Assembly: GCA_031271175.1 (NCBI GenBank)
Contig: JAISWE010000170.1
Coordinates: 1-44,371 of the forward strand
DNA length: 44,371 nucleotides
DNA from: Bacteroidales bacterium
Lineage (GTDB): Bacteria > Bacteroidota > Bacteroidia > Bacteroidales > UBA4181
Direction: 5' to 3'
Shown: positions 20-44,371 of the stretch, piece after piece
Position numbering within the stretch: position 1 is the stretch's first letter
Layout of the letters: each line of letters opens with the position of its first letter
Notes under the pieces: generated by a model
Databases searched by the model: none
The model's input: the letters and a program-made list of their open reading frames with translations, nothing else
Told to the model about the DNA's origin: nothing
Made by a program: the position numbers and the translations under genes

Positions 20-96
20 GGGGGATTAGCTCAGCTGGCCAGAGCACCTGCCCTGCAAGCAGGGGGTCAAGGGTTCGACTCCCTTATCCTCCACCA
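20..96 (+). tRNA. tRNA-Ala (anticodon TGC)
   Basis: The cloverleaf can be read by eye. The acceptor stem 20-26 pairs with 86-92 with one G-T wobble. The anticodon stem 47-51/59-63 closes a 7-nt loop with TGC at 54-56. A T-loop GGTTCGA lies at 72-78, the discriminator is A93, and CCA is encoded at 94-96. In Bacteroidota this tRNA usually sits in the rRNA operon spacer with tRNA-Ile, but the 235 bases between it and rpoB hold no rRNA. What lies upstream of base 1 cannot be seen. Confidence 0.97.
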
Positions 97-41522: not shown

Positions 41523-42122
41523 ATGAAAATAGCCATCCATATTATTTTAGTTATCGCTATTTGCGCGATATCATATTTTATTGTCGAAAGTGTCCAGAAA
41601 CCGATACGGTTTAACCGAGAACAGGAAAAGCGCTATAACGCTACCATTCAGCGGCTGAAAGACATACGAACGGCTCAAGTCGCATACAAGGCCGAGAACA
41701 AACGCTACACGGCAAGTTTCGATACTTTGATTGCCTTTTTGAGAGAGGGAGATTTCAAAGTGGTGAGGCAGATCGGCGACGAAGACGATTCCGCCGACGT
41801 AAAAGCCGGACGCATCATCAGAGACACCACCCTGGTGCGGGTGCTGGATTCCCTGTTTTACAAAGGTTATCCTATAGACTCCATCAAATATGTCCCCTTC
41901 ACCGACCGGAAAGAGTTCGAAATGGGTACGAAAAATATGGAAGCCGGAAAGGTCAAAGTGCAGGTGTTTGAGGCAAAGGTTCACAATGACATCCTCCTGC
42001 ATGGGATGGATCCTCAACTGCTGCTGAACTTTAACGCCGCAAGGGAGAAGACCGTCAAATATGCCGGATTAAAAGTCGGCTCTCTGTCCGAACCCAACAA
42101 CAATGCCGGAAACTGGGAATAA
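41523..42122 (+). CDS. Conserved hypothetical membrane-anchored, pseudopilin-like protein
   Basis: A 199-aa protein with one N-terminal membrane segment (IAIHIILVIAICAISYFIV, 3-21) and a soluble C-terminal domain. The stretch RLKDIRTAQVAYKAENKRY followed by ASFDTLIAFL resembles the helix and loop of type II secretion pseudopilins, but the prepilin peptidase site (Gly-Phe/Glu+5) is missing. Homologues with this layout occur next to DUF3822 and rsmD in Bacteroidales. The stop is 28 bases before the preferred start of the next gene. Function unknown. Confidence 0.75.
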   Translation: MKIAIHIILVIAICAISYFIVESVQKPIRFNREQEKRYNATIQRLKDIRTAQVAYKAENKRYTASFDTLIAFLREGDFKVVRQIGDEDDSADVKAGRIIRDTTLVRVLDSLFYKGYPIDSIKYVPFTDRKEFEMGTKNMEAGKVKVQVFEAKVHNDILLHGMDPQLLLNFNAAREKTVKYAGLKVGSLSEPNNNAGNWE

Positions 42123-42150
42123 GAACGCATGTTTTTCCTGCATCGATCTG

Positions 42151-42966
42151 ATGGATGAAACTTTTGATGTTTCGCGATCAGTCACTTTTGACCTGTCACT
42201 GCAAATAGGGGCGGAAGGAATGTCTTATTGCCTGTACGATACCGTTGTCAATAAGTTTGTGCTATTGCGCCATTATCCTTTTGGCGGACACGAAGAGGCG
42301 GTTGCATCGTGTGAAAAGCTGTTGGCGTCGGATGAATACTTGCAACTTCCCTTCAAGCAGCGCCGTGTCATGTGGGTTTCGCCGCGTTCGACGGTGGTGC
42401 CGGAAGCATTGCTGGACGAATCTCGTGCGGAACAGCTGCTCACTTTCAACCAGGGCGATCCCCTACAGGAAGAACAGACCTTCGTCCGTCACCTGCCTTC
42501 CCTGAAGTTGTATCTGCTGTTTTCCGTTCCTGCGACGCTTGTTCGCCTGCTTTCCGCCTGTCAGCCCAACATCCGGTGGATACATCATGCGCAGCCGGTG
42601 ATGGAGGGAAGCGCCTCCAAAGCCATGCCTGTCTCGCTCTTTTTTTACGATGGTTACATGGATACGGCGCTTTTCCGGGACAGCCGGTTCCTCTTCTATA
42701 ACAGCTATCCGGTACATGCCCCTGAGGACGTTTTTTATTTTCTTAGCGGCGTGATGGAACAGTTCGATGTGCCGTTGTTTACCGCCGGAATAGCCTACTC
42801 CGGATTATCCAACGACATTGCGCCGTATCTCGAAACGCTCAAAAGCCATTCCTTGCGGATCGTGGAATGTGAACCCGACAAAAAACCTGTCTATAGCTAT
42901 GCGATCACCGAGGCCTTGCGCAAACGCTTTGCTTACCTGTTCCATCTCCACGAATGCGCATCATAG
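42151..42966 (+). CDS. DUF3822 family protein
   Basis: A 271-aa protein of the Bacteroidota DUF3822 family, whose fold is ASKHA/actin-like according to family descriptions, with unknown function. I prefer ATG 42151 (MDETFDVSRSVTFDLSL) because it matches the family start; an upstream ATG at 42103 would overlap the previous gene by 20 bases. Typical stretches are LRHYPFGGHEEAV, VMWVSPRSTVVPEALLDE and YSGLSNDIAPYLETLKSHSL. Its end overlaps the rsmD start by 13 bases, so the two are translationally coupled, which is usual for this family. Confidence 0.87.
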   Translation: MDETFDVSRSVTFDLSLQIGAEGMSYCLYDTVVNKFVLLRHYPFGGHEEAVASCEKLLASDEYLQLPFKQRRVMWVSPRSTVVPEALLDESRAEQLLTFNQGDPLQEEQTFVRHLPSLKLYLLFSVPATLVRLLSACQPNIRWIHHAQPVMEGSASKAMPVSLFFYDGYMDTALFRDSRFLFYNSYPVHAPEDVFYFLSGVMEQFDVPLFTAGIAYSGLSNDIAPYLETLKSHSLRIVECEPDKKPVYSYAITEALRKRFAYLFHLHECAS

Positions 42967-43484
42967 GCGGCACATACAAGGGAAAGACCATTGCGGTAAA
43001 TGCCCGTCTGTCGCTCCGGCCTACCACCGATTTTGCCAAAGAAGGCTTGTTCAACATCCTTTCCGGTCGATACGAACCGGCGGCTTCGGAGGTGCTTGAC
43101 CTGTTTTCCGGTACGGGCAGCATCAGCTATGAATTTGTTTCGCGCGGCGCAAGAAACGTCCTTGCCGTGGAAATGAACCCGCAACATGTCGGATTCATCC
43201 GGCAAACAGTCCGAACCATGCATATCGAAAACATCAGGATCGTCCGGGACGATGTTTTTCACTTCCTTACTATTTGCAAGGCAACTTACGATGTTATTTT
43301 TGCCGACCCTCCCTACGATATGCACAGGCTGCCGTTCCTTCCCGACGAAATCCTGCACAGGCCGCTGCTCAACGACAACGGCATCCTGATCGTAGAACAT
43401 TCGCGGCGCACGGATTTTTCCGGCCATCAACGGCTGATCATGCACCGCAACTATGGCAACGTACATTTCAGCTTCTTCCGCTAA
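42954..43484 (+). CDS. rsmD: 16S rRNA (guanine966-N2)-methyltransferase
   Basis: A 176-aa SAM-dependent methyltransferase that modifies G966 of 16S rRNA. It opens with MRIIGGTYKGKTI, the family N-terminus. LRPTTDFAKEGLFNIL is the conserved RsmD region. The SAM loop is DLFSGTGSISYE (F51-S56), and the catalytic motif ADPPY lies at about 117-121 (D118). The length is close to the usual 180-200 aa. The start lies inside the end of the DUF3822 gene (13-base overlap). No T-run terminator follows; a small perfect hairpin CGATG-CGC-CATCG lies at 43486-43498 just after the stop. Confidence 0.94.
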   Translation: MRIIGGTYKGKTIAVNARLSLRPTTDFAKEGLFNILSGRYEPAASEVLDLFSGTGSISYEFVSRGARNVLAVEMNPQHVGFIRQTVRTMHIENIRIVRDDVFHFLTICKATYDVIFADPPYDMHRLPFLPDEILHRPLLNDNGILIVEHSRRTDFSGHQRLIMHRNYGNVHFSFFR

Positions 43485-43734: not shown

Positions 43735-43776
43735 CAAAATTAGATGAAAAACATCTGTTTTCCATGCGCATGCAAT
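43735..43776 (+). repeat. 42-bp direct repeat, copy A
   Basis: Starts CAAAATTAGATGAAAAACA and includes GTTTTCCATGCGC. It matches copy B (43977-44018) at 34 of 42 positions by eye. AGATG and CATCT inside the copy can pair around AAAAA. The two copies are 242 bases apart, start to start. Confidence 0.75.
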
Positions 43777-43840
43777 GAAAAAAAGTTTTTTGCAGAGGAA
43801 AGAACAGGAATAATTGCCTAAATTGACAGCGAATTGACTA

Positions 43841-43936
43841 TTAATTGACTAATTCATAATAACTGCCTGCACCATATCCTTTATTAATCAATAATTTGAA
43901 TGCATTTGCCAAATTGTGCAATTCATTAGTTGCCAT
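43841..43936 (-). CDS. Short open frame or gene fragment (31 codons)
   Basis: ATG at 43936 and stop at 43841; translation starts MATNELHNLANAFKLLINK and ends GYGAGSYYELVN. The frame is open a little further upstream without an ATG (NYQEINEVSRQ), giving a helical, protein-like peptide of about 45 residues. I do not recognise it. It lies between the two 42-bp repeats. It could be the tail of a lost gene, a very small gene, or chance; the sequence does not decide. Confidence 0.3.
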   Translation of the reverse strand: MATNELHNLANAFKLLINKGYGAGSYYELVN

Positions 43937-43976
43937 TTGTCTTGAGACTTCGTTTATTTCCTGATAATTTAAAGTG

Positions 43977-44018
43977 CAAAATTATATGAAAAACAAAGGT
44001 TTTCCAAGCGCGTGAGAT
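43977..44018 (+). repeat. 42-bp direct repeat, copy B
   Basis: Starts CAAAATTATATGAAAAACA and includes GTTTTCCAAGCGC. See copy A (43735-43776). It lies 105 bases before the IS110-like start codon, so it may belong to the left end of that element. Confidence 0.75.
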
Positions 44019-44122
44019 AAAAATCAAGACCACCCCGTTGCGCTTACTGCCGTACTCGAAGTACAATTGCTGTCTTTGTAGCTTAAATTAAGTAATTGTT
44101 TAACAATTAAAAATGTAAGTTT

Positions 44123-44371
44123 ATGGACAAATGTTGTGGTCTTGACGTGCAAAAAGACTTGATTAGAGGCAGTTTTGTCCCTGATGACGTTCTTCGGCAA
44201 ATGCGTCGGTTGACTCGCCGGTGTCGCCGGTTGACCAAAAACAGGGTTCGCTTTGAGCAGCAGATGGACAATCAGTTGCAGCGATGTAACATCTGTTTTA
44301 GCAATTATGTTTCCGGTCAGGGGAATAATAGTGATTATGTCAATTTAATTACAGGCCAAATTTTAATTTTT
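44123..44371 (+). pseudogene. IS110-family transposase remnant, internally deleted, partial at window end
   Basis: An ATG at 44123 opens a frame of 83 codons that is still open at the last base. It begins MDKCCGLDVQKD, the start of the RNase-H-like DEDD domain of IS110-family transposases with the first catalytic Asp (D8). It then jumps directly to LIRGSFVPDDVLRQMRR and VRFEQQMDNQLQRCNI, which in full-length relatives lie about 90 residues further on. The missing part holds the second (Glu) and, I believe, the third catalytic residue, so this protein cannot be active. After NYVSGQGNN the sequence leaves the family pattern. The join falls on the codons QKD, a short stretch shared by both sides in relatives, as expected of a recombination deletion. 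Confidence 0.8.

What the first reader, a model, noticed from the sequence alone, without database searches (positions are those of the whole stretch)
44019..44371. Deleted IS110 transposase with a possible bridge-RNA end
The frame joins the DEDD start directly to the middle of an IS110 transposase, losing about 90 residues and catalytic Glu. IS110-group elements carry a bridge RNA in the non-coding end before the gene. The region before the ATG has two hairpins and might hold one, so this could be a non-autonomous element mobilised by a full copy in trans.
Basis: partly seen in the sequence, partly recalled or inferred. Interest (0 to 1): 0.5.

Follow-up and report, generated by a model that had tools for sequence, protein, structure and literature searches.

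The report
Broken copy of an RNA-guided transposon
The end of this contig holds a dead copy of a jumping gene whose intact relatives appear to use a guide RNA, stored after the transposase gene, to insert into the promoter motif of host genes, and whose bare ends have spread in this genome as mini-elements of about 65 bases.

Summary
In detail: 44123-44371 is an IS110-family transposase ORF with an in-frame internal deletion of about 94 residues, cut off by the contig end. By itself it is an ordinary relic. The proposed 5' bridge RNA is not supported: 43981-44122 is the element's left end (LE) plus leader. In intact relatives the guide-RNA-like structure lies after the gene, in the right end (RE). 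It has a covarying stem and a guide TAnnTTTG whose two free bases match the element's own right flank in 18 of 20 distinct elements (0 of 200,000 permutations). Reconstructed targets read CAAA|nnTA, i.e. the Bacteroidota -7 promoter box; the LE rewrites the box after insertion and tends to face a gene start. Two filled/empty pairs show precise insertion, one of a full element and one of a mini-element. The window genome carries at least 23 mini-elements made only of LE plus RE, one at 43735-43801. So 'non-autonomous derivatives' is right for the family, but untestable for this copy, whose RE lies beyond the contig. No RNA or transposition was measured; the mechanism is inferred from sequence.

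The parts
43735..43801 (+). Mini-element (ends only): target CAAA 43735-43738, LE part, RE part ending GCAGAGGAAA; right flank GAAC
   Evidence: Listed among the dispersed LE+RE repeats; its right flank departs from G[AG]TA
43977..43980 (+). CAAA, the target half kept at the left junction (inferred)
   Evidence: Filled/empty pairs of relatives; same letters at 30 of 31 left ends listed in the own genome (regex biased towards them)
43981..44122 (+). Left end (LE) and leader of the IS110 element
   Evidence: 83-88% identical stretches at C203, C177, C215, C149, C68; same layout in full-length relatives
43988..44004 (+).
   Evidence: Sequence; arms vary together in many copies
44017..44025 (+). 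ATAAAAATC, conserved inner LE block
   Evidence: Present in the LEs and, as this or close variants
44052..44064 (+).
   Evidence: Seen with complementary other arms (GTGCTCGAAGCAC, GAGCTCGAAGCTC) before the transposase of several relatives
44071..44078 (+). TGTCTTTG, possible degenerate -7 box of the transposase promoter (inference)
   Evidence: Sequence; other copies read TATCTTTG here
44123..44371 (+). Internally deleted IS110 transposase ORF, cut by the contig end
44148..44157 (+). Deletion join in a short imperfect repeat

Best explanation
The feature is a dead, internally deleted copy of an IS110-family element of a Bacteroidota group whose guide RNA lies in the right, downstream end. In intact members (about 1.45-1.62 kb) the RE RNA carries a guide TAnnTTTG (pairs with the top strand) and a guide (N)CAAA (pairs with the bottom strand). 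Together they select CAAAnnTA, the reverse complement of the sigma-ABfr -7 promoter box. The recombinase joins the circle (RE-AA-LE) to the target at an AA core; the right flank keeps nnTA, and the LE, read outwards, puts TAnn beside the retained TTTG so that a -7 box is rewritten. Ends-only derivatives of about 65 bp use recombinase and RNA from another copy and have spread in this genome and relatives. Shown by sequence: the deletion, the ends, two filled/empty sites, the guide/flank match, the RE stem. Inferred: that the RNA is made and guides insertion, that promoters keep working, and that mini-elements move in trans.
For: Intact relative L092: DEDD_Tnp_IS110 E 1.2e-25 and Transposase_20 E 8e-18, NF033542 E 4e-71 over cut-off, IS621 structure 8wt6 E 1.2e-10. 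Layout of LE, gene, RE in L092, L094, L096, L100, L103 and Bacteroides bouchesdurhonensis copies. Filled/empty pairs. Guide/flank match in 18 of 20 distinct elements, permutation maximum 14; guide letters and flank letters each change 8 times on a tree of 17 transposases. RE stem: 12 both-sided cells in 8 close relatives, 1 of 500 shuffles as high. RNA model hits at C63 of the own genome (E 8.2e-4) and in G001 (E 1.6e-29). LE faces a gene start in 31 of 45 copies against 13 of 46 on the RE side, and 16 of 21 against 5 of 14 for full elements. Guide order (top-strand match 5' of bottom-strand match) as in IS1111 seekRNAs (PMC11187229 section 9).
Against: No RNA or transposition data. RE fold energy is not better than shuffles (z -0.03). 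In the 8 more distant relatives a one-column slide of the stem gives more both-sided cells than the stem itself (13 against 11; pairing 66% against 80%). The lower RE helices have no both-sided changes. Guide mismatch in L074 and, at its first RE end, L166. Right flanks in the own genome are GATA or GGTA in only 14 of 23 mini-elements; in G407 they are GTCAGG in the six. Neither copy in the window sits before a convincing gene start. The -33-like bases in the LE are weak.
Confidence: 0.75

Rival explanations
1. One reading: the 5' non-coding end holds the bridge RNA and this copy is a non-autonomous element mobilised in trans.
For: Two hairpins exist and the second palindrome is kept with complementary arms in several relatives; the IS110 group usually has its RNA upstream (PMC11208160).
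Against: No fold signal, no model hit there, no target guide noticed there; the guide matching the flanks is in the RE. The 5' non-coding stretch is about 142 bases against about 300 at the RE of close relatives. This copy's RE is not in view.
Confidence: 0.05
2. The dispersed ~65-bp repeats are host promoter or REP-like repeats that serve as the target into which the IS inserts, not derivatives of it.
For: They lie mostly before genes, and the IS left end looks like half of one. I held this view at first.
Against: Full elements in seven genomes without the exact repeat pattern still carry the same left end. One repeat interrupts an IS110 gene whose empty form is known. The right half of the repeat matches the RE end.
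Confidence: 0.06
3. TAnnTTTG in the RE is only the promoter of the RNA or of an outward transcript, not a guide.
For: It equals the -7 consensus (PMC7366714), so it could also act as one.
Against: Its nn follow the flank in 18 of 20 elements; it lies inside the loop closed by the stem.
Confidence: 0.1
4. The deletion is an assembly artefact at a repeat.
For: C58, C177 and C149 end, and C203 begins, inside this element; the C177 and C149 copies agree at 138 of 142 bases.
Against: The join is about 215 bases from the contig end, in frame, at a short repeat; differently deleted copies exist elsewhere (C203, C63, L204, L208, L217).
Confidence: 0.06

Closest known systems
IS1111-type elements with a seekRNA (ISEc11, ISKpn4, ISPa11; PMC11187229, passages and sections 9 and 13 seen)
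   Same: Long non-coding region downstream of the transposase gene; two overlapping guides, the top-strand one 5' of the bottom-strand one
   Different: Clear subterminal inverted repeats not found; the target is the promoter -7 box, whereas the targets named in what I read are attC sites and REP sequences
IS110-type elements with a bridge RNA (IS621; PMC11208160, passages and section 7 seen)
   Same: DEDD plus Transposase_20 recombinase, short core, guides to both strands sharing the core, donor guide resembling the element end; trans-supplied RNA works on a 22-bp donor
   Different: IS621 has its RNA in the left end; here it is in the right end
Bacterial MITEs of other IS families (Cardinium, from ISCca4; Paracoccus MITEPye1, from IS1182; PMC9769881 and PMC11578231, passages seen)
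   Same: Short, gene-less, dispersed, built from the ends of a parent IS
   Different: The parent here is a DEDD IS110-type element without terminal inverted repeats joining LE and RE; only core bases repeat at the junctions

Membership tests
IS110 family (window copy itself) | Complete DEDD domain and Transposase_20 domain | tested here: not met
   Only model positions 111-153 of 155 of the DEDD domain, below cut-off; no second domain in view
IS110 family (full-length relatives) | DEDD domain plus Transposase_20 domain | tested here: met
   L092; IS621 match
IS110 family (full-length relatives) | Guide RNA bound by the recombinase; circular intermediate | not testable with these tools
   Only sequence evidence for the RNA
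IS110 group | Longer non-coding region and RNA upstream of the gene | tested here: not met
   RE about 300 bases after the stop in close relatives against about 110-170 before the ATG; guide in the RE
IS1111 group | Longer non-coding region and RNA downstream of the gene, top-strand guide 5' of bottom-strand guide | tested here: met
   compared with PMC11187229 section 9
IS1111 group | Subterminal inverted repeats, usually 11-13 bp, with short terminal extensions | tested here: not met
   Of 13 elements the longest LE/RE inverted match is 5-9 bases in 12; L107 has a 17-base match at another place (LE offset 54)
MITE (mini-elements) | Short, gene-less, carries both parental ends, dispersed, with an empty site | tested here: met
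MITE (mini-elements) | Moved by a related enzyme in trans | not tested
   Inferred from the lack of gene and RNA region

The most novel reading that the evidence does not exclude
A Bacteroidota-wide group of RNA-guided transposons has its guide RNA fixed on the housekeeping sigma-factor -7 motif, with only the two free promoter bases drifting. Each insertion cuts a promoter and rebuilds its -7 box from the element's left end. Its ends-only derivatives of about 65 bp, moved in trans by recombinase and RNA, have become portable promoter pieces scattered before host genes.
Probability: 0.55. Interest if true: 0.75.

Novelty: new variant of a known kind. Interest (0 to 1): 0.58.

Why it matters
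If right, it adds a general and host-sparing kind of target (the promoter -7 box) to RNA-guided IS110-type elements, supplies a guide/target covariation set for guide RNAs that sit in the right end, and points to natural donors as small as about 65 bp, which bears on minimal donors for bridge-RNA tools. The window copy alone is an ordinary relic.

Tried and rejected
Bridge RNA in 43940-44122: rejected. Dispersed repeat as the target: held at first, dropped. A TA core, written in notes 23 and 27, was replaced by an AA core. Right donor guide: only loose matches to the LE seen by eye, not claimed. An RNA with a guide for the G407 flank GTCAGG: the pattern gave 9 hits in G407 against 5 for the reversed control, and I saw no bridge-RNA context in the printed strings. 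RNAalifold over 17 REs together gave almost nothing (-1.2 kcal/mol), so close and distant sets were counted apart; L075 was but in neither counted alignment. Window tail 44330-44371: in a search of the held loci the best match beyond the window's own sequence is 13 bases. In the G407 rows two right ends were set wrongly by the regex; searches are used for them. Selection to keep in mind: the REs were cut by regex on TAnnTTTGT and AGAGGAAA, and the left ends by regex on CAAA-like starts, so the constancy of those letters is partly by choice; the nn letters and the four flank letters were left free.

Full report
What is in the window. The window is the whole of contig C58 of a 2.93-Mb genome, about 80% complete. 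The closest named relatives of the element are Bacteroidota (top of the list). At 44123 starts an ORF joining MDKCCGLDVQKD to LIRGSFVPDD. Against the intact 380-aa transposase of L092, 94 residues (13-106) are gone, with E56, D92 and D95 (catalytic role recalled). The join falls in an imperfect short repeat. Homology fades near 44330-44350 and the contig ends at 44371. Such a protein is very unlikely to be active. A search of the own genome with the L092 protein finds six stretches on three contigs, C63, C203 and the window's own, none of them complete. C177 and C149 end inside left ends that agree at 138 of 142 bases, so an intact copy may be missing from the assembly rather than from the organism.

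The element's ends. A DNA search of the own genome with 43840-44371 gave 35 places: the window itself, five longer matches to the 5' region, one to the transposase, and 28 short ones near 43976-44023. A protein search of genome contigs gave 52 loci, among them full or nearly full elements L092, L094, L096, L100, L103 and copies in Bacteroides bouchesdurhonensis. The left end starts at CAAAnnTA in all five, and in 14 of the 15 loci whose left end is in view (exception L080; L074 begins inside the end). In the own genome 30 of 31 listed left ends read so (the exception GAAAGGTA abuts a mini-element in tandem), but that list was drawn with a CAAA-like regex. Right ends read TAGAGGAAA followed by nnTA.

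Filled and empty sites. In B. bouchesdurhonensis one copy (L119, same place L243) interrupts an ISAs1-like gene (label recalled) present elsewhere in that genome: filled TTCCAAAA|TTATATAG..TTTTTAGAGGAAA|GGTAATAATAG; empty TTCCAAAAGGTAATAATAG in six copies printed (L244, L246-L250), with GGCA in L245. In a same-genus genome (G001, L217) a mini-element interrupts an IS110 gene: filled GTGCACAAA|ATTACATG..GAGGAAA|GATAGCG; empty GTGCACAAAGATAGCG in L005 of the own genome. Both fit precise insertion at an AA core without loss or longer duplication. The empty form of the second pair is the same gene in another genome, not the same locus. The L217 host element itself looks internally deleted.

Guide RNA in the right end. 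Between stop codon and RE end the relatives share a stem arm, TAnnTTTGT, CAAA, the other arm and AGAGGAAA, which repeats the RE end. In 8 close relatives the 31 chosen pairs are 91.5% paired (49% or less when slid), with 12 both-sided cells (1 of 500 shuffles as high); nearly all of that comes from the outer stem. In 8 more distant relatives the outer stem is 80% paired with 11 both-sided cells (2 of 500), but a slide by one column gives 66% and 13, so that set is weaker. A script over all loci held then gave 28 RE blocks: 3 had no RE end, 5 were further B. bouchesdurhonensis copies, leaving 20 distinct elements. In 18 of 20 the flank nnTA is the reverse complement of the RNA's TAnn (0 of 200,000 permutations reach 18, maximum 14). 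Misses: L074, and L166, where a second RE-end motif 39 bases on is followed by the predicted GGTA. Permutation does not allow for kinship, but on a tree of 17 transposases guide and flank letters each change 8 times. The guide order is that of IS1111 seekRNAs (PMC11187229, section 9); both-strand pairing sharing the core is that of IS621 (PMC11208160, section 7). Place within the family stays open: RNA side IS1111-like, but no clear subterminal repeats.

The target is a promoter box. The right flanks of all 20 elements end in TA, and left flanks in view are CAAA, so targets read CAAAnnTA, the reverse complement of TAnnTTTG, the sigma-ABfr -7 consensus (PMC7366714, passages). The left end puts TAnn beside the retained TTTG, rewriting a -7 box. 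The LE tends to face a gene start: 31 of 45 against 13 of 46 on the RE side for mini-elements and related copies in five genomes (Fisher p 1.4e-4), and 16 of 21 against 5 of 14 for full elements, of 22 tried (four are B. bouchesdurhonensis copies). A similar ORF rule at 28 CAAAnnTA sites of the window gives 21 and 21: the rule is lax but not one-sided. The two copies in the window do not fit, having no convincing gene start on the LE side. That promoters stay active is inference; TTGG at the right spacing in the LE is a weak -33 match and is not seen in the B. bouchesdurhonensis LE.

Mini-elements. The short dispersed repeats are LE joined to RE: 23 with both ends in G000 (60-67 bp), 7 in G001, 2 in G002, 2 in G005 (lower bounds, since only part of the places were fetched), and six in G407 plus a decayed one, L200. 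An exact pattern finds them in 4 of 12 family genomes, all four of the own genus, with control 0; in nine genomes (own and eight with IS relatives) it finds them in two, G000 and G407. They lack the RNA region, so enzyme and RNA must come from elsewhere; RNA in trans with a 22-bp donor is reported for IS621 (PMC11208160). Right flanks are GATA or GGTA in 14 of 23 (G000) and 7 of 7 (G001); in G407 GTCAGG in six of six, unexplained. The RNA model hits 6 of 13 genomes at E up to 1: in G000 one decayed stretch in C63 (E 8.2e-4), in G001 a well-kept one (E 1.6e-29), in G407 none.

The 5' region is an IS end with two real hairpins, but not the guide RNA: no model hit there (the window's only hit, E 0.58, overlaps the mini-element), no unusual fold (the RE RNA is also unremarkable by energy), and the guide lies at the other end in intact relatives. 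'Non-autonomous and moved in trans' fits the mini-elements; for this copy it cannot be told.

Literature. Searches (open-licence PubMed Central only; subscription papers and ISfinder not covered; only the top rows of each were listed) showed no title or abstract on IS110-type elements aimed at the -7 box or on ends-only IS110 derivatives. Passages or sections were seen of PMC11208160, PMC11187229, PMC9769881, PMC11578231 and PMC7366714; the rest were seen in listings only.

Noticed in passing
L143, L145, L147, L149 (G407): Six mini-elements have right flank GTCAGG instead of G[AG]TA, as if aimed by a differently programmed RNA; none found.
   Followed up: partly
window 44052-44064 and leaders of relatives: Palindrome with loop CGA kept and complementary arms (GTACT/AGTAC, GTGCT/AGCAC, GAGCT/AGCTC) before the transposase gene; role unknown.
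   Followed up: partly
L204:340-597, L208:256-497, L217 (-): Intermediate-size internally deleted elements with both ends; the L217 one carries a mini-element inside it.
   Followed up: partly
L009 (C68, own genome): Mini-element and IS left end in direct tandem, GAGGAAAGGTACATGAAAA.
   Followed up: no
LE hairpin of mini-elements: Inner letters of the LE hairpin differ between copies yet stay complementary (GAAAAC..GTTTTC, GAAAATC..GATTTC).
   Followed up: no
window 44330-44371: Tail of the ORF with no transposase homology; ends in ATTTTAATTTTT, a string also seen in the RE of L235, too short to judge.
   Followed up: partly
window 20-93: tRNA gene, the only Rfam match in the window at gathering thresholds.
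   Followed up: no
window 42954-43484: Methyltransferase gene (Pfam Cons_hypoth95, E 2e-38), preceded by a DUF3822 protein at 42103-42966.
   Followed up: no
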